A program made the position numbers and the translations under genes. From Candidatus Stygibacter australis (GTDB lineage: Bacteria; Cloacimonadota; Cloacimonadia; Cloacimonadales; TCS61): a stretch of DNA of 32,989 nt. The notes below the pieces were generated by a model that saw only the letters and a program-made list of their open reading frames with translations, did not search any database and was not told the origin of the DNA. The stretch spans positions 1 through 32,989 of the forward strand of contig JAVCDJ010000130.1 in assembly GCA_030765845.1 (NCBI GenBank), in the 5' to 3' direction. Shown here piece after piece: positions 6,180-19,897 of the stretch (positions are counted from its first letter, which is position 1; every line of letters starts with the position of its first letter).

Positions 6180-8429
6180 TTAGAATGTGGTACCGAACTG
6201 GAAGTGTGGTTCCCAGGTACCATCAGCAAGGTTTTTGGCATAATCAAAGCCGATCAAGCCAAAGGGACTGAATATTCTAATGCCAATTCCCGCACCTTTT
6301 TTTAAATCCCAAAGATTAAACTTATCAAAGCTGTTAAAACAATCTCCGGCATCTAAGAATGTAAGAAAAGCAACCTGATCAGTGACTATAGGAATAACAT
6401 ATTCAGTGGAAAACAACATTTCTCTTTCACCGCCATCATTATTACCAAATTCATCAGTCGGTCCCACAGACCTGTCAGTATATCCTCTTATTCCATCAGA
6501 ACCGGTTCCACCAAGATAAAACCGTTCATCCGGTGGTACAGTATGACCATCGTAACCAGTCACGTAACCGAACCTCCACTTAGTACGCAAGCCAAAATTA
6601 AAGAAGGTGCGAACATACCAGTTTGCCTGAAAAATCTGCTTGATATAGCTATTATCTCCCTGTAGTGGTCCTCCTGCGACTTCAGTGAATAGTACAAGCT
6701 GGGAGCCAGAAGTGGGGAAGTAGATATTATTACGATTATCACGGCTCAAGGTTATTGAGATACCGGAATTATCTTTCCAACCGTCATCAACCAGATCCTG
6801 CAATTCATCAGAAACTTCATCATCATCAGTATCATCCAGGATAGTATATTTTTTTCGGTAATATGAATAACCAAAGGTTAATTTAGCGCGATTGACCAGG
6901 TTGATAGGGAATCCCACTTTGAGAGATCCACCGTGCTTTCTAAGTTCATAGGTATCATATTCCTTAGTAGCGAAATAGGCATTAAATCCGGTAAGGAAAT
7001 TACTATCAAGGAAATAAGGATTTGTGAAGCTGAGATCAAGGTTTTGAGTAGAACCACCAAATTCCCAGGCAAGAGATACTTCCCAGGAATTTCCCAGTAG
7101 ATTATTATGACTGAGTCCCAATTGACCAACAATGCCATCTTCACTATTTAAGGCTACTCCGCCGTTCGCGGTTCCTGAAATCTTATCATTAACATTGATC
7201 ACCAGATCAATATCACCATTTCGATTTATGACCTTATAATCAGGATAGAGTTCAGGTTCAAAGAATCCGGTATTATATATATTAGAAAGAGATCTTCTTA
7301 CGCGTGACTGCTGAAAGTAATCACCCGGGGCAAGAACGAGCTGACGACGGATTACTTTTTCCTTAGTACTGCGGTTTCCTCTGATATGAATTTTATGGAT
7401 TTTTGCACGGGTATTCTCAATAATAGCAACCTTGAAATTAACTTCTTTCCCGTCCTTAATTTGCTGAGGAGTAATGCTTGAATAGATGTAGCCTTCTTCA
7501 TAATACATACTGTTTACAGCAGACATCTGCTCTTCAAATTTTTCTTTATTAAAGACCTCATTATCCTTGAATTTGAAATTTGCTACCAGCTGTTCATCCG
7601 TAAAGACAGTATTTCCATTAAAACTCACCTTACCAAAGGTAAAGGAGTCCCCTTCGTAAAGGTAGATATTAATATAGAACCCATCTCCGCTGATTTCCTT
7701 TTTCTGGGAAATTATATGAGCATCGATGTATCCCTTCTTATTATAAAATTTTATGATCTTATCCAGGTCTTCCTGATACTTATCTTCTTCCAGCTTACCT
7801 GAGTGGAAGAAACCCGCTTTTTTGGTGCTCATTTTGGAACGCAGCTTCTTGTTGGAAATATCATGATTTCCATGTATAGTGATCTTACGGATCACGATTT
7901 TTTCACCTTCATCAATATCAATGATCAAATCCACATAATCATCAGTAAAATTCTCTTCAAAGTTTATTTGAGCGTAGTGATAACCTTTTGTCTGATATTC
8001 TGCCATTATTCTGTTTTTGATTTCTGGTACGATATAAGGAGCATAATAATTTCCGGTTTCCACAATAACCAATTCTTCAAGTTTACTATCCTTGATCTTT
8101 TTATTTCCCTTGAATTTAAGTCTTCTGATCACCGGAAATTCCTTAAGATGCACAGTTACTACTATTCCCTGCTTCATGATGGTGCTGGAAATGCTGACAT
8201 CATCAAACACTTCAAGTTGATAGAGGTTGTGGATTGATTTAGAAGTATTATCTTGTGAGAGATAATCTCCGATATCAAATGCCAGAAGCGATTTGATCAG
8301 TTCTTTTTCGATACGATTATTACCTTCGATATTGATTTCGAGGATTTGTCCATAATCAGTTTCTGCTAACATCAGCAGGGGCAGCATAATGATCCCTAAA
8401 ATGAGGATCATACGGTGTAATTTACTCAT
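6180..8429 (-). CDS. bamA: Outer-membrane protein assembly factor BamA
   Basis: 749 aa, close to the family length. Signal peptide 1-22 (ILGIIMLPLLMLAETD). Five POTRA modules follow over ~25-410, recognisable by repeated starts such as ILEINIEGNNRIEKELI, RRLKFKGNKKIKDSKLEEL, KITIHGNHDISNKKL, KVSFNGNTVFTDEQL and KIHIRGNRSTKEKVI. The 16-strand barrel (~415-749) holds the conserved loop-6 motif GSDGIRGY and ends with an aromatic beta-signal (HFQFGTTF). BamA folds and inserts barrel proteins into the outer membrane. GGAGG precedes the ATG. It appears monocistronic, ending at its own terminator; no skp/ompH or lpx genes follow, unlike in proteobacteria. A diverged copy of its last 29 codons lies at 1872-1958. 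Confidence 0.95.
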   Translation of the reverse strand: MSKLHRMILILGIIMLPLLMLAETDYGQILEINIEGNNRIEKELIKSLLAFDIGDYLSQDNTSKSIHNLYQLEVFDDVSISSTIMKQGIVVTVHLKEFPVIRRLKFKGNKKIKDSKLEELVIVETGNYYAPYIVPEIKNRIMAEYQTKGYHYAQINFEENFTDDYVDLIIDIDEGEKIVIRKITIHGNHDISNKKLRSKMSTKKAGFFHSGKLEEDKYQEDLDKIIKFYNKKGYIDAHIISQKKEISGDGFYINIYLYEGDSFTFGKVSFNGNTVFTDEQLVANFKFKDNEVFNKEKFEEQMSAVNSMYYEEGYIYSSITPQQIKDGKEVNFKVAIIENTRAKIHKIHIRGNRSTKEKVIRRQLVLAPGDYFQQSRVRRSLSNIYNTGFFEPELYPDYKVINRNGDIDLVINVNDKISGTANGGVALNSEDGIVGQLGLSHNNLLGNSWEVSLAWEFGGSTQNLDLSFTNPYFLDSNFLTGFNAYFATKEYDTYELRKHGGSLKVGFPINLVNRAKLTFGYSYYRKKYTILDDTDDDEVSDELQDLVDDGWKDNSGISITLSRDNRNNIYFPTSGSQLVLFTEVAGGPLQGDNSYIKQIFQANWYVRTFFNFGLRTKWRFGYVTGYDGHTVPPDERFYLGGTGSDGIRGYTDRSVGPTDEFGNNDGGEREMLFSTEYVIPIVTDQVAFLTFLDAGDCFNSFDKFNLWDLKKGAGIGIRIFSPFGLIGFDYAKNLADGTWEPHFQFGTTF

Positions 8430-12287: not shown

Positions 12288-13064
12288 CTATTGATGTCTA
12301 TTTTTTATTTTCACATAAATCTTATCTAAAACTGATTGTGATATTTGTTTTAGAGTAGTATTATGTCTAACAATACCTGAAAGGTGAGGACTTATCAAAT
12401 AGTAAACTTTAATAAAAAATCTACCAAATATTTTTTTTGAAAGAAAATCGTCTCTGAATTTTCTAAATTCAATTACTTTGGGGTGATTGTAATCACCATA
12501 GGTCGCAGTTGCAATGAAACAGCCATCGCCAGCAGATGGTTTTATTTCAGACAGTTGACTATCTTCTCCAGAAATTTCATATTTAGCTTGAGGTTTGATA
12601 GCAGTATGGAGATAACTAGTTTTATCATATTGAATCTCATAATTATAGACATTTTTTAAAACTTCAAGAGCATCATATCCGCTTGCCTTTTCTTCAATAA
12701 AATTACCTAGTAAATCAAATTTACCAACTTTTGAAAGAGGTTCCAGCATCAAATCATTTCCTTCAATATATTGAAGAGCGGAACACACCATATTAAAATC
12801 TTTATTTGATGTTAATGACGCTCTAATTGTTTTTATTAATTTATTATTTCCTGTTTCAAAAGCAATAATAAATACATTTTCACTTCCACTTAATGTAGCC
12901 TGAGAATCGCCATGATAGAATTTTTCCAAATTACAAAAAAGACCTATATGAACAGATTTCCAAAATATTTCCCATGCAGTATAACCATAACAATGATTTT
13001 CATTATGTTTATTTAATTTATCAATATCAAATCTGATACCAATAGGATTATTAAAAAAGAACAT
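12288..13064 (-). CDS. CFI-box-type C-terminal domain protein, longer copy
   Basis: 258 aa, GGAGG 5 nt before the ATG. Residues ~1-175 are of unknown function and contain a WEIFWKSVHIGLFCNLEKF segment. From ~180 the C-terminus reads GCFIATATYGDYNHPKVIEF followed by RKFRDDFLSKKIFGRFFIKVYY and ISPHLSGI. This matches the module NCBI calls CFI-box-CTERM (Cys-Phe-Ile, AYG/TYG, LRxFRD, GRxFVxxYYxxSP), found at the end of many otherwise unrelated bacterial proteins. Its function is unknown. No signal peptide. A second gene with a degenerate version of the module lies immediately upstream (13089), so this looks like an old tandem pair. The region is more AT-rich than its surroundings. Confidence 0.72.
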   Translation of the reverse strand: MFFFNNPIGIRFDIDKLNKHNENHCYGYTAWEIFWKSVHIGLFCNLEKFYHGDSQATLSGSENVFIIAFETGNNKLIKTIRASLTSNKDFNMVCSALQYIEGNDLMLEPLSKVGKFDLLGNFIEEKASGYDALEVLKNVYNYEIQYDKTSYLHTAIKPQAKYEISGEDSQLSEIKPSAGDGCFIATATYGDYNHPKVIEFRKFRDDFLSKKIFGRFFIKVYYLISPHLSGIVRHNTTLKQISQSVLDKIYVKIKNRHQ

Positions 13065-13088
13065 TTAACCTCCAGATAGCAACATTAT

Positions 13089-13643
13089 TTATTTTTTACA
13101 ATAGATATTCAAGAAATTTGTAAGAAAATCTCTTAGCTTGTTTATGCTTTTTATGAAATCTACAATACTAGGGCTTATCTTATAATATAATTTAACAAAT
13201 AATTTTTCGAGATAGTTACTATAAAGAACTTTATCTCTGAATTCTCTATATTCGACAACTGAGGAATGATTGTAACTACCATAAGTGGGAGTAGCAATAC
13301 TACCAATCTTATCTTCTTGTTTGATATCTTCTTCTCGTTCTTGGGGTTGTAAATGACCAATTAATTTATGCATAAATTCTTGTGGGGAAGTTTCACGACT
13401 CTCTGTCCAAGATAACAGGTTGATGCTGCCAAATCCTACAGTTCCTTCTCTTTTATAGAAATCATCACATTTGATTTTAATTTTTTTGTATTCATCATCT
13501 GGAATTATTCCCCTATGATAAGCCTCAATAATCATCATTTTAGTTTTTACCATTTGCTCTGTTGAAAATGAAATTTTCAGTTTCTTCTCAATTTTATCGA
13601 TATACACTTCTTTTGGATATATAAAATCCTCCTTTTTATCCAT
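13089..13643 (-). CDS. CFI-box-like C-terminal domain protein, degenerate copy
   Basis: 184 aa. Residues ~1-115 are unrecognised and helical (STEQMVKTKMMIIEAYHRGI). From ~123 the C-terminus reads IGSIATPTYGSYNHSSVVEY, REFRDKVLYSNYLEKLFVKL, YYKISPSIVDFI. That is the same module as in the next gene, but the signature Cys-Phe is replaced by Gly-Ser, so the conserved cysteine is lost. The ATG at 13643 has only a weak ribosome site; a perfect AAGGAGG lies inside codons 4-6, with no ATG/GTG/TTG at normal spacing after it. Translation may therefore start elsewhere (an in-frame ATA is suitably placed). It could be a decaying paralogue. Confidence 0.6.
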   Translation of the reverse strand: MDKKEDFIYPKEVYIDKIEKKLKISFSTEQMVKTKMMIIEAYHRGIIPDDEYKKIKIKCDDFYKREGTVGFGSINLLSWTESRETSPQEFMHKLIGHLQPQEREEDIKQEDKIGSIATPTYGSYNHSSVVEYREFRDKVLYSNYLEKLFVKLYYKISPSIVDFIKSINKLRDFLTNFLNIYCKK

Positions 13644-14171: not shown

Positions 14172-14666
14172 ATGATGGTAAAGATAAAAAATAAAGATCA
14201 GTTAGAAATCGTTGGAGTAGAAAATTGGCGTAATGGTTACTCACTAAAGAAGATAGCGCGATTGGAAAAATCATGGGCTTTAGTCTTTCGTGAATATATT
14301 CTACCTTACCTTCCCGTGAAGTTCATAAAGAAATTTTACTTTTATAAGACAGGTAGAAATTCCAAAGAACTTTATTCTACGATTGGAGCAGCCATTCTTC
14401 AGCAGTTTTTTGATTTATCAGACGCAGAAACAGTAGAAAAGTTAGCTTTCGATCAGCAATGGCACGTTGCTTTAGATTGTTTTGACGATGAAGATCAAGT
14501 TATGTGCGAGAGAACACTTTTTAGCATGCATACCCATATATCAGAAGAAAATCTGGCTGATAAGATATTTGCTCTTGCAACCGATGTGATGGTCGAAGCC
14601 TTACAAATAGATGTCAGTAAACAAAGACTTGATTCAGTTCATGTAAATTCCAATATGGCATGCTAA
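14172..14666 (+). pseudogene. IS1182-type transposase, 3'-truncated
   Basis: 164 codons remain of a protein normally ~450-550 aa. The N-terminal DUF772-type region is clear: YSTIGAAILQQFFDLSDAET, the Gln-Trp-His segment FDQQWHVALDCFD, RTLFSMHTHI, and the start of the catalytic domain at VSKQRLDSVHVNSNMA, which precedes the first DDE Asp region in IS1182 relatives. Homology ends there; the frame then reads one Cys codon and stops at 14666. The catalytic domain and right end are absent. The 3' end overlaps a minus-strand lipoprotein gene by 33 bp, so a deletion or recombination joined the remnant to that gene. Confidence 0.8.
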
Positions 14667-16437: not shown

Positions 16438-16566
16438 TCACTTTACTGTATAAAGTAATTCAGAATTAAACATATCAGCCGGGGAGATAACTGCCATATC
16501 CATGGGTAATCCCTCGGGGTAGCGTTTTTTAATACTTTTTGAAAATGTATCAAATTGAAAATCTGC
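16438..16566 (-). pseudogene. Displaced 3' tail of a YiiX-like gene (42 codons plus stop)
   Basis: On the minus strand this encodes IKKRYPEGLPMDMAVISPAD followed by MFNSELLYTVK and stop. The intact gene at 19286 ends MKKRYPQGVPLDMSVISPAD and MYNSELLYTVIHN, so the homology is clear at protein and DNA level. There is no start; just upstream the AT-rich frame is not coding, and the stop of the SecB-like gene follows at 16575. It is the remains of a second YiiX paralogue or a duplicated tail. Confidence 0.85.
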
Positions 16567-16574
16567 AAATTAAA

Positions 16575-17060
16575 TTAATATTCAACTGTTTTTGTTTTGT
16601 TTTTGGCAATCTCTTTATCAAGTTCTTTCTTAAGCAATTCCAATTTTTTTGATACCAATTCCTGCATATCAAAGGAGGGTAATATATATGTGCCATAGGG
16701 ACAATTATAAGTTAATGTTTTAAGATATGATCTGGAATACGAGATTACCATAGCAAGTGCTGAATTCTCTAAACCATTGGAAGAGGGGGCAGACTTCCTA
16801 TCTTGAATATAAAAATACCCATGAATTAGACAAGAGATTTTATATCCTTTTCGTTTTCTGGGTGGTGAAATACTAAGTTTCAGGCATAATCTGAAAAAAT
16901 CATCATTCTTATTATTGTATTGTTTATCAAAGTCAACTTTAATAATACTATCTTCCAGGATTACTCGATCATCATCACTGTTGGCAATTGTCTTAACAGA
17001 ATGCTCCAGTGATTTAATTTCAATTAATTTTAACGGGGACTCAGTCACTTTTATCATCAT
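16575..17060 (-). CDS. SecB-like chaperone of a toxin-antitoxin-chaperone (TAC) module
   Basis: 161 aa. The layout matches SecB: an N-terminal strand (IEIKSLEHSV), paired long strands (FFRLCLKLSISP and GYKISCLIHGYFYIQD), then the helix ENSALAMVISYSRSYLKTLT followed by YGTYILPSFDMQELV. The last part corresponds to the SecB signature of a helix ending in a glycine-rich turn and LPPxNFxAL. A basic insertion (PPRKRKG) and a charged helical tail distinguish it from housekeeping SecB. In TAC systems (for example M. tuberculosis Rv1955-Rv1957) such a chaperone protects the antitoxin. It starts 5 nt after the antitoxin stop; AGGAG fits the second of two adjacent ATGs (17057) slightly better. Assignment is by eye. 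Confidence 0.62.
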   Translation of the reverse strand: MMIKVTESPLKLIEIKSLEHSVKTIANSDDDRVILEDSIIKVDFDKQYNNKNDDFFRLCLKLSISPPRKRKGYKISCLIHGYFYIQDRKSAPSSNGLENSALAMVISYSRSYLKTLTYNCPYGTYILPSFDMQELVSKKLELLKKELDKEIAKNKTKTVEY

Positions 17061-17065
17061 AACTC

Positions 17066-17503
17066 CTATGCCGCTTTGGGCTTTGAGTCAGGACTATCCT
17101 TTTTTATATCAGCAATTGACTCTGTTAACTTTGTGATTTCATCCTTAAGTTGCTTCTTCAATGTTTCTCCTGCTTCCAAAGCACATGGATTATATTCAAC
17201 TTCACTTGAAGACAGCATAATTATATTACTTTCCGAAATTAATGCAAGCGAAATATCAATATTTAATATTCTTTCAATTTTGGCAATGTGCTTCAAATTA
17301 AGAAGTTTATTACCATTGAAGACGTTACTTAAAAAAGAAGGATGAACAGCCATTTTCTCTGATAATTCTTTTTGATTAATACCGATAATTCTCATTCTAT
17401 CTTTTACGTCTTCAAGAAATTGTAATTGAATACCAAAAGCACTGACTTCATCTACTATTTCATCGTTAAACCCGCTGATAAATTCTCTAAATTCCTGCTT
17501 CAT
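17066..17503 (-). CDS. XRE-family antitoxin (HigA-like) with C-terminal extension
   Basis: 145 aa, GGAGG before the ATG. Residues ~25-85 are a Cro/C1 HTH: QLQFLEDVKDRMRIIGINQK, ELSEKMAVHPSFLSNVFNGN, KLLNLKHIAKIERILNIDIS. After it comes a ~55-residue tail (SSSEVEYNPCALEAGETLKK, a coiled helix, then a Lys/Pro-rich end). In TAC systems the antitoxin carries a C-terminal chaperone-addiction region bound by the SecB-like partner; this tail is the natural candidate. It overlaps the upstream gene by ATGA (17500-17503) and is followed by the SecB-like gene after 5 nt, so all three are coupled. It is expected to repress its own operon. Confidence 0.75.
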   Translation of the reverse strand: MKQEFREFISGFNDEIVDEVSAFGIQLQFLEDVKDRMRIIGINQKELSEKMAVHPSFLSNVFNGNKLLNLKHIAKIERILNIDISLALISESNIIMLSSSEVEYNPCALEAGETLKKQLKDEITKLTESIADIKKDSPDSKPKAA

Positions 17504-17976
17504 ATTTTCCTCCTGGGACGTTTTTTCAATTCTATTTCTAAAATGTCCTGGATATATTTTTCTTTGGCAATGTTACCAATAATTTTTCGTTCTTGAGCCT
17601 GGTTTTTTTCCCCTTGTTTTACATGTACGCGACTCATCACGATGTGATATTTACCATTAATTTTATGCTCCTGGCAATAAATCCGCAAATTCCCGAATAT
17701 TGCAGCATTTCCTAGAAACTTCATTGCTACAACCTGATTTGGAGCTCCATCATTCTCTTCCCTATACATTTCTTTTTTGTACTGGTTTTCCTTCCTTTCA
17801 TAAAGAAATAGCAATATCTTGATAAAATGAACCACTCTTTGATCATTTTTCCTGATTGCTGAAAGAATTTCTTTCTTTCTTCTGCTATCCCAATAAAGAA
17901 GAAACTTAGCTTTAATTACTTCACTAGCGTTGAATTTTGGACTAATTTCCTGATAATTAACTTCTTCAATCAGCAT
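17500..17976 (-). CDS. Candidate toxin of the TAC operon (RelE/HigB-like)
   Basis: 158 aa from ATG 17976, which lies 7 nt after the stop of a small leader frame and has GAGTG before it; a TTG at 17994 would add six residues. The N-terminal half is helical and basic (KAKFLLYWDSRRKKEILSAI). The C-terminal half, AMKFLGNAAIFGNLRIYC, YHIVMSRVHVKQGEKNQAQE, RKIIGNIAKEKYI, follows the order of HigB/Gp49-type RelE-fold toxins: a strand with a basic residue, LRI, a strand ending in a Lys-rich turn, then a final helix. The similarity is structural pattern, not clear sequence identity, and the protein is longer than usual (90-120 aa). Operon position before an XRE antitoxin and a SecB-like gene supports the role. 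Confidence 0.5.
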   Translation of the reverse strand: MLIEEVNYQEISPKFNASEVIKAKFLLYWDSRRKKEILSAIRKNDQRVVHFIKILLFLYERKENQYKKEMYREENDGAPNQVVAMKFLGNAAIFGNLRIYCQEHKINGKYHIVMSRVHVKQGEKNQAQERKIIGNIAKEKYIQDILEIELKKRPRRKI

Positions 17977-17983
17977 ATTCACT

Positions 17984-18082
17984 CTATATGTCAATAAATT
18001 TACCTATAGGTAAATTTGTCAATCTTTTTTCTAGATGATTTCTTTCGAATTCTTGTAATTTAGACAATTTATTTTTTTTCAT
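17984..18082 (-). CDS. Possible 32-aa leader peptide upstream of the TAC toxin
   Basis: A frame of 32 codons begins at ATG 18082, preceded by AAGGGA at good spacing, and begins MKKNKLSKLQEFERNHLEKR. It stops with TAG at 17984-17986, 7 nt before the toxin ATG, an arrangement suited to translational coupling. It lies between a plausible promoter (18129-18156) and the toxin, and contains the 22-bp palindrome. It is Lys/Arg/Glu-rich and helical. I do not recognise it; it could be a leader peptide, a small TA component or chance. Confidence 0.38.
   Translation of the reverse strand: MKKNKLSKLQEFERNHLEKRLTNLPIGKFIDI
17996..18017. promoter_or_regulatory. 22-bp perfect palindrome, likely TAC operator
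   Basis: AAATTTACCTA and TAGGTAAATTT are adjacent perfect reverse complements centred at 18006/18007, just before the toxin gene. TTGACA flanks it on the minus strand. Size and position suit autoregulation by the XRE antitoxin. An alternative is an RNA hairpin affecting toxin translation. Confidence 0.6.
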
Positions 18083-18128
18083 AATTAATCCCTTTTTCTC
18101 TGAATATATGAAATTTACATTACATGAT

Positions 18129-18156
18129 ATTATAAAAAGACCATAGCTTATGCAAA
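18129..18156 (-). promoter_or_regulatory. Candidate promoter of the TAC operon
   Basis: On the minus strand TTTGCA (18151-18156) and TATAAT (18129-18134) are separated by 16 nt, ~47 nt upstream of the leader frame start. The -10 is perfect and the -35 weak. Confidence 0.45.
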
Positions 18157-18459
18157 TTTAACAGTAACACATCTATCACTAATCATTATATAAACAATGA
18201 ATACTTAACTTTCATCTCACCCCAATTGCTATTTAATTCAATACTTTGTCAAGTAGAAATAGATTTTATTAACTAACCAAATATAATAATCTGTATTGAA
18301 CATAGGATTGAATATATGTATTTCAGTGAATTGATTATTAGCAAAGATTCAGGTATTATTATCAGTTAGGCAAATAATCATAAATTCCTTGACAAGATCA
18401 ATAATGAAGTCATTTATTTACAAGAAATTAAAGGTTGGAAAAATGTTAAGGAGATTATC
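18157..18459 (+). other. Intergenic region between the TAC operon and a membrane-anchored secreted protein
   Basis: AT-rich and without a supported gene. TTGACA at 18389-18394, followed 17 nt later by ATTTAT, is a possible plus-strand promoter for the gene at 18460, but the -10 is poor. Nothing else is recognised. Confidence 0.35.
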
Positions 18460-19017: not shown

Positions 19018-19285
19018 TTTAATTGTAACCTAACTCGGCTAAACCGAAAACAAAAATAAAGATTTTTCAAACACAGAGGACACTGAGAAATGTAATGTGA
19101 AGACTTTTTTAGGCAACGAACAAGACGAACAAAACAATCTTACTAAAGCAAATAATGAAAGAATTATTAACCAAGGAAGATACAGTTTTTTTGCGTATCC
19201 AGACCATCCCTGGTCTGATTTAACTAAATCGGGTAGTAAATTTGTCAATTGACCTGTCGCCAGGAGTCTTGTCGAATCGCTCAGG
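19018..19285 (+). other. Intergenic region with degenerate repeat-like sequence
   Basis: It contains a hairpin (CAGACCA-TCCC-TGGTCTG, 19200-19217) and a plus-strand protein-like stretch ending SFFAYPDHPWSDLTKSGSKF and a stop at ~19251, without a start or ribosome site. The part around 19070 (ACACAGAGGACACTGAG) is like degenerate dispersed repeats seen in many environmental genomes. No supported gene. Confidence 0.35.
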
Positions 19286-19897
19286 TTAGTTATGGATTAC
19301 GGTATAAAGCAATTCTGAATTATACATATCAGCCGGGGAAATTACAGACATATCCAAGGGTACTCCCTGTGGGTAGCGTTTTTTCATGAGCTTCTGTACT
19401 TCAGGAGATGACAGATCGAAATCTGCCATGGTTTTAAGTTCCCCAATATCAATACCTAAAGCTCGATGATAAATTTTCCAGACCAGTTCGGAGCAGTAAA
19501 TACTTTCATCTGACCAGTCGAAGTAAATGTCATAAGGTTTATTCAGAAACTGGTCTCCGGATTCTTTCATTTTCAGTAAATTATCTTCGGTCAGCACATT
19601 TTTCCAGTTTTTAAGTCGCTTCACAACGTAATGATGATCTTCTCCTCTGGCAATCCACTCTTTAAATGGGGTTGTTTTTACTGGACCGACAGCTTCATAA
19701 ACATATATCTTACCTTCCAGTATATAGATAATCCCCATGTGACTGTATTGTGAATGAGTTGCCTTTTGGATAGCCAGGCTCTGACTGGATTTTGAGACCT
19801 GAAAGATGATATCCCCGTTGTGGAGCATATCTTGCTGGCATGAGCAGATCAAAATCACACATACCAGCAATATTGCTACAGTAAATTTCTTAATAAT
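19286..19897 (-). CDS. YiiX/YebB-like permuted papain-fold lipoprotein
   Basis: 203 aa if translation starts at ATT 19897. The frame N-terminal to the usual reading gives IKKFTVAILLVCVILICSC, a textbook lipoprotein signal with two lysines and a lipobox, with GGAAAG at proper spacing; the alternative TTG at 19870 would leave only MLVCVILICSC without a basic n-region. The mature part matches the YiiX family of permuted papain-like hydrolases: NGDIIFQVSKSSQSLAIQKA, SQYSHMGIIY with the catalytic His (~53), VYEAVGPVKTTPFKEWI, and SDESIYCSELVWKIY with the catalytic Cys (~134), ending VISPADMYNSELL. The family probably cleaves amide or thioester bonds at the envelope. A second copy of its tail lies at 16438-16566. 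Confidence 0.8.
   Translation of the reverse strand: MIKKFTVAILLVCVILICSCQQDMLHNGDIIFQVSKSSQSLAIQKATHSQYSHMGIIYILEGKIYVYEAVGPVKTTPFKEWIARGEDHHYVVKRLKNWKNVLTEDNLLKMKESGDQFLNKPYDIYFDWSDESIYCSELVWKIYHRALGIDIGELKTMADFDLSSPEVQKLMKKRYPQGVPLDMSVISPADMYNSELLYTVIHN

What the first reader, a model, noticed from the sequence alone, without database searches (positions are those of the whole stretch)
16575..18160. Candidate toxin-antitoxin-chaperone (TAC) operon with SecB-like third gene
Three tightly coupled minus-strand genes read: basic RelE/HigB-patterned protein, XRE protein with a 55-residue C-terminal tail, SecB-patterned protein (helix then LPSFDMQEL). ATGA overlap and a 5-nt gap couple them. TAC systems controlled by SecB-like chaperones are known in M. 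tuberculosis and Proteobacteria; one in a Cloacimonadota-like genome with a larger toxin and an XRE antitoxin would broaden the group. The tail of the antitoxin is the expected chaperone-addiction segment.
Basis: partly seen in the sequence, partly recalled or inferred. Interest (0 to 1): 0.75.

Follow-up and report, generated by a model that had tools for sequence, protein, structure and literature searches.

The report
Toxin-antitoxin-chaperone operon with unfamiliar toxin
This is a three-gene bacterial self-poisoning switch in which a small SecB-type helper protein probably keeps the antidote alive; the arrangement is known elsewhere, but the presumed poison belongs to a family that the protein databases searched here do not describe, and the operon recurs, usually with its own on/off DNA site, in nine Cloacimonadota genomes.

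Summary
Three minus-strand genes (T 17976-17500, A 17503-17066, C 17060-16575) are coupled by an ATGA overlap and a 5-nt gap. The same T-A-C order recurs in all nine Cloacimonadota genomes that carry T (of 125 searched); T was never found without C. C is SecB-related: it falls below Pfam, but comparison with Pfam-positive Cloacimonadota SecBs is decisive (hhalign E 9e-10; hmmsearch 29 bits), and a homologue hits CmdC (PD-T4-9_C, 2.6e-7). A is an XRE antitoxin with a fast-evolving tail ending in AA, like most SecB-associated antitoxins of the phylum. A perfect 22-nt palindrome lies just upstream of T; its 16-nt core is unique in this 3.8-Mb genome and occurs exactly at 7 of 9 T operons, with only four other sites in 125 genomes. 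T has no convincing match in Pfam, NCBIfam, PHROGs or PADLOC. A RelE/HigB relationship is plausible (empirical p about 0.004, fitting topology) but not proven; the AlphaFold models were low-confidence. Best reading: a genuine TAC module, a new variant by its toxin, probably an RNase-type toxin released when the chaperone is titrated. Toxicity, chaperone dependence and any phage role are untested.

The parts
17500..17976 (-). T: putative toxin, 158 aa, basic; no database family; RelE/HigB-like pattern (V-AMKF, N-R-YC-E, then H/K-K)
   Evidence: ATG 17976 preferred over TTG 17994 because the operator ends at 17996 and L002 has the same ATG
17066..17503 (-). A: XRE/HTH_3 antitoxin, 145 aa; HTH about residues 41-85; tail about 91-145 ending KPKAA
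   Evidence: HTH_3 6.3e-7, above cut-off; tail 13/46 identical to L002 versus 63/90 in the HTH part
16575..17060 (-). C: SecB-like chaperone, 161 aa
   Evidence: hhalign E 8.8e-10 and hmmsearch 29.1 bits against Cloacimonadota SecBs; PADLOC PD-T4-9_C 0.0017, homologue L005 2.6e-7; no Pfam hit for this copy alone
17996..18017 (.). operator: perfect 22-nt palindrome AAATTTACCTATAGGTAAATTT, next to TTGACA (18022-18017)
   Evidence: core unique in the genome even with 1 mismatch; core at 7 of 9 T operons and only 4 other sites in 125 genomes
17066..17233 (-). presumed chaperone-addiction segment (ChAD) of A with terminal AA (candidate ClpXP degron)
   Evidence: variable tail; comparison with PMC5105189 and PMC11618068; function inferred
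17500..17503 (-). ATGA stop/start overlap T-A; an overlap (4-23 nt) is kept in all nine operons

Best explanation
The locus is a tripartite toxin-antitoxin-chaperone (TAC) module. T inhibits growth, most likely as a RelE/HigB-type (BECR-fold) mRNA-cutting toxin. A binds T and, through its HTH, represses the operon at the 22-nt palindrome. The C-terminal tail of A is unstable (aggregation-prone and/or a ClpXP substrate through its Ala-Ala end) unless the SecB-like tetramer C holds it. When C is occupied or lost, for example because a phage structural protein or a stalled export substrate competes for it, A is degraded, T is freed, and growth or phage replication stops. Shown here: operon, gene order, SecB relationship of C, HTH of A, tail variability, shared operator, co-occurrence of T and C. 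Inferred: toxicity, RNase activity, chaperone dependence, protease, trigger.
For: T-A-C order in 9/9 genomes that carry T, T never without C, in three families of Cloacimonadota. C is SecB: the C profile also finds four loci that Pfam calls SecB; hhalign score 62.8 versus at most 22.3 in 200 decoys. The PF02556-positive genes of the phylum whose neighbours were read lie just downstream of an antitoxin-like gene, and the window genome has no other SecB by PF02556. Operator: perfect palindrome, shared core at 7 of 9 T operons, none other in G000. Antitoxin end AA: window and L002 both keep it in an otherwise diverged tail; 10 of 13 SecB-associated antitoxins of the other types end AA, against 0 of 64 other ORFs of at least 200 aa. 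T against Gp49 HigB: collinear over 93 columns, score reached by 1 of 499 decoys, no decoy comparable over 80 columns; predicted core order helices-bbb-helix fits RelE b-a-a-b-b-b-a (PMC11980606).
Against: T has no credible family hit in four libraries (only borfam52 at 9e-4, below its cut-off) and no PDB relative; its model is poor and Foldseek gave nothing. The AA end is not general in this subfamily: L003 TA, L008 PA, but L004 KK, L005 GD, L006 GC, L007 GY. L004 lacks the operator. The C model is low-confidence. No experiment.
Confidence: 0.83

Rival explanations
1. It is a TAC module, but T is not a RelE/HigB-type RNase; it is a separate toxin family with another fold or target (for example a nucleotidyl- or ADP-ribosyltransferase, gyrase poison or HEPN-like RNase).
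For: No family match in Pfam, NCBIfam, PHROGs or PADLOC and no PDB relative by profile; TAC-like toxins of this phylum already differ widely (short RelE-patterned, HEPN, CmdT-type).
Against: Collinear profile alignment with Gp49/HigB, score reached by 1 of 499 decoys, and the three-strand core followed by K/KK and a helix.
Confidence: 0.35
2. C is a general export chaperone (the only SecB of this genome) that happens to be co-transcribed with an ordinary two-gene toxin-antitoxin pair.
For: G000 has no other SecB by PF02556; Mtb SecB(TA) can replace E. coli SecB in export (PMC5105189).
Against: 112 of 125 Cloacimonadota genomes have no PF02556 match and only 9 of 125 have this type, so it is not a housekeeping gene; T and C always travel together and all C homologues follow an antitoxin gene.
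Confidence: 0.08
3. Degenerate or silent remnant without function.
For: The operon lies beside a truncated gene copy and a transposase-like fragment.
Against: Purifying-selection pattern in all three genes, intact starts and overlaps, conserved operator.
Confidence: 0.04

Closest known systems
M. tuberculosis TAC, HigB1-HigA1-SecB(TA) (Rv1955-1956-1957)
   Same: Toxin, XRE antitoxin with C-terminal extension, SecB-like third gene in the same order; antitoxin tail binds the chaperone and carries a ClpX degron (PMC5105189, PMC6377645, PMC8165232).
   Different: T not recognisable as HigB by family models; C below the Pfam SecB cut-off; addiction and toxicity not shown here.
CmdTAC (PD-T4-9) of E. 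coli
   Same: Three-gene TAC; the C subfamily hits the PADLOC CmdC model; CmdA ends LAA and is a ClpP substrate (PMC11618068).
   Different: CmdT is an mRNA ADP-ribosyltransferase and T shows no similarity to it. CmdA is described as two helices plus an unstructured tail, A has an HTH. Anti-phage role unknown.
HigBAC of E. coli C496
   Same: RelE-superfamily toxin, HigA antitoxin, SecB-like chaperone; released by the lambda major tail protein (reviewed in PMC11980606).
   Different: T lacks a HigB family match; trigger unknown.
Gp49/HigB toxins (PF05973)
   Same: Collinear profile alignment, arrangement b-a-a-b-b-b-a, K/KK after the last strand.
   Different: Similarity near the detection limit (hhalign P 0.04; empirical about 0.004); T is longer (about 140-165 aa).

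Membership tests
TAC (toxin-antitoxin-chaperone) systems | Three co-directional coupled genes in the order T, A, SecB-like C | tested here: met
TAC (toxin-antitoxin-chaperone) systems | Third gene homologous to SecB | tested here: met
   L003 homologue PF02556 1.3e-3; one member TIGR00809 2.2e-4
TAC (toxin-antitoxin-chaperone) systems | Antitoxin of a known family with a variable C-terminal extension | tested here: met
   HTH_3; variable tail of about 55 aa
TAC (toxin-antitoxin-chaperone) systems | ClpX-type degron at the antitoxin C-terminus | tested here: inconclusive
   window and L002 end AA, but four of nine homologues end otherwise
TAC (toxin-antitoxin-chaperone) systems | Toxicity neutralised by A only when C is present | not testable with these tools
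   needs growth assays
SecB family PF02556 | Score above the curated Pfam cut-off | tested here: not met
   no match for the window protein; L003 19 bits against 26; the relationship rests on profile comparison
SecB family PF02556 | SecB fold (four-strand sheet, two helices, tetramer) | tested here: inconclusive
   AlphaFold2 pLDDT 41 with 3 sequences
RelE/ParE (BECR) toxin superfamily | Sequence family match | tested here: not met
RelE/ParE (BECR) toxin superfamily | Topology b-a-a-b-b-b-a and remote profile similarity | tested here: inconclusive
Type II TA autoregulation | Palindromic operator in the promoter region of the operon | tested here: met
   site present and conserved; binding itself not tested
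CmdTAC / PD-T4-9 | CmdT-type ADP-ribosyltransferase toxin | tested here: not met
   T: no PD-T4-9_A hit

The most novel reading that the evidence does not exclude
T founds a new toxin family (own fold variant or own target), used only in chaperone-addicted modules of Cloacimonadota, and the module is a phage-sensing defence in which a phage structural protein takes away the SecB-like chaperone.
Probability: 0.25. Interest if true: 0.65.

Novelty: new variant of a known kind. Interest (0 to 1): 0.45.

Why it matters
TAC modules are now known to sense phages by letting a viral protein take away a chaperone. This locus adds a coherent subfamily in an almost uncultured phylum, with a toxin that no searched family library names, a SecB branch below the Pfam threshold and a shared operator. 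It suggests that chaperone addiction has been joined to more toxin types than HigB, MqsR, HicA and CmdT. The SecB genes of Cloacimonadota whose neighbourhoods were read appear to be TAC parts, which fits the earlier remark that SecB outside alpha-, beta- and gammaproteobacteria is mostly TA-associated (PMC4257090).

Tried and rejected
Family scans of T in Pfam, NCBIfam, PHROGs and PADLOC: nothing credible. PDB sequence search with T and C profiles: nothing. AlphaFold2 of T and C with 4 and 3 sequences: too poor to use; Foldseek of the T model meaningless. T against short toxins of Cloacimonadota XRE-SecB operons: no signal, but only 2 sequences. T or C in phages, plasmids and viral contigs: none. 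T outside the phylum: none in about 260 further genomes nor in a pattern-limited scan of GTDB contigs; these negatives are weak. A 32-aa upstream reading frame (18082-17984) is not kept in L002 and was dropped. Empty insertion site in sister genome G002: its contig ends too early.

Full report
What is there. The three minus-strand genes are present as described: T (158 aa from ATG 17976), A (145 aa) and C (161 aa), joined by an ATGA overlap and a 5-nt gap. The window belongs to a draft genome (G000, 3.8 Mb, 278 contigs); three of the related loci carry the record names Cloacimonetes / Candidatus Cloacimonadota.

Conservation. A search with C hit 10 of 99 relatives, the window's own genome included. 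Eight besides the window carry the same T-A-C order with overlapping T-A junctions; the remaining one (L010) has a short toxin-like gene, a double-HTH protein and a Pfam-positive SecB. A T profile finds nine genomes of 125 in the phylum, and a C profile finds the same nine plus four weaker hits, all of which PF02556 also calls SecB. T was not found without C. Codon-position differences against L002 (56-65% identical proteins) show purifying selection in all three genes.

C is a SecB relative. The window protein alone misses Pfam, but L003 scores 1.3e-3 for PF02556 and one family member 2.2e-4 for TIGR00809, L005 scores 2.6e-7 for PD-T4-9_C, the CmdC chaperone, and hhalign of the family against eleven Pfam-positive Cloacimonadota SecBs gives E 8.8e-10, score 62.8 against at most 22.3 in 200 column-shuffled decoys. 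hmmsearch with that SecB profile gives the window protein 29.1 bits. The AlphaFold model (3 sequences) is too poor to show the fold.

A is an XRE antitoxin. HTH_3 is above its cut-off. The HTH part is 63/90 identical to L002, the tail 13/46, yet both tails end AA. Among SecB-associated antitoxins of the phylum's other TAC-like types, 10 of 13 end AA (L025-L030, L032-L034, L036; not L023, L024, L031), whereas none of 64 other long ORFs does. The literature states that TAC antitoxins, CmdA among them, end in LAA, a ClpXP signal, and that the C-terminal extension confers chaperone addiction (PMC11618068, PMC5105189). In the T subfamily itself the AA end is kept only in the window and L002 (plus a single final Ala in L003, L008, L009), so the degron reading is an inference for this locus and doubtful for its distant relatives.

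Operator. A perfect 22-nt palindrome AAATTTACCTATAGGTAAATTT sits at 17996-18017, abutting TTGACA. L002 has the identical 22-mer; TTTAnCTATAGnTAAA occurs just upstream of T (or over an over-long TTG start of T) in L003, L005, L006, L008 and L009, and in altered form in L007. In 125 genomes the exact 16-mer occurs at 11 places: 7 are T operons; of the other four, three lie inside predicted genes and one (G103) lies near a contig end. The reversed control pattern occurs at 7 places in the 125 genomes. In G000 it is unique even with one mismatch. L004 has none. This is good evidence for autoregulation by A; binding was not tested.

T. No library names it. Invariant residues are I54, Y71, E74, A84, K86, N96, R98, Y100, C101, E103. 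Profile comparison with six Gp49/HigB toxins of the same phylum aligns 93 columns collinearly (score 18.1); 1 of 499 column-shuffled decoys reached that score and none combined a score of 14 or more with 80 aligned columns; the reversed profile scored 9. Two templates were tried; the empirical p is about 0.004 before allowing for that. The low-confidence model has helices, three strands and a helix, compatible with RelE b-a-a-b-b-b-a. I take a RelE/HigB-type RNase as the likeliest single reading (about 0.6) but not as shown.

Mechanism. Best reading: A neutralises T and represses the operon; the A tail needs C; removal of C exposes A to proteolysis and frees T. In CmdTAC and HigBAC the release is caused by phage capsid or tail proteins that take the chaperone (PMC11618068; PMC11980606). 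Whether that is the trigger here is unknown.

Comparison. It meets the genomic criteria of a TAC (order, SecB homologue, antitoxin with variable tail, operator). It is not CmdTAC (no CmdT) and not demonstrably HigBAC (no HigB match). The phylum already holds XRE-type, HEPN-type and CmdT-type TAC-like operons, so TAC presence in Cloacimonadota is ordinary; the toxin family and the low-similarity chaperone branch are what is new.

Noticed in passing
window 16443-16533 and 19297-19387: The stretch right after C is a 91-nt copy (86% identical) of the 3' end of the YaeF/YiiX C92 amidase gene at 19286-19870: a truncated gene copy, so the TAC operon lies in or beside a duplicated C92 gene.
   Followed up: partly
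L023, L028, L029, L030, L032, L033, L036: SecB-positive operons whose first gene is HEPN-like (L028 PF05168 3.7e-5) and whose second gene is a 140-190 aa protein without Pfam match (tested for L030) that mostly ends ..AA: a HEPN-type TAC that I did not find described.
   Followed up: partly
L034 (G108:C27, about 8086-8385): A CmdTAC-type operon in Cloacimonadota: CmdT model PD-T4-9_A 8.7e-14, an 83-aa protein ending SAA, and SecB.
   Followed up: partly
window about 19058-19250: A dispersed repeat (pieces of about 30-190 nt) with dozens of matches in G000, G001 and G002.
   Followed up: no
window 12288-13643: Two neighbouring genes share a C-terminal motif (CFIATATYGDYNHPKVIEFRKFRDDFL / GSIATPTYGSYNHSSVVEYREFRDKVL), apparently duplicated and diverged.
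   Followed up: no
window 14172-14666: Fragment that reads like the N-terminal part of a transposase (IS1182/IS5-like, from memory), cut short.
   Followed up: no
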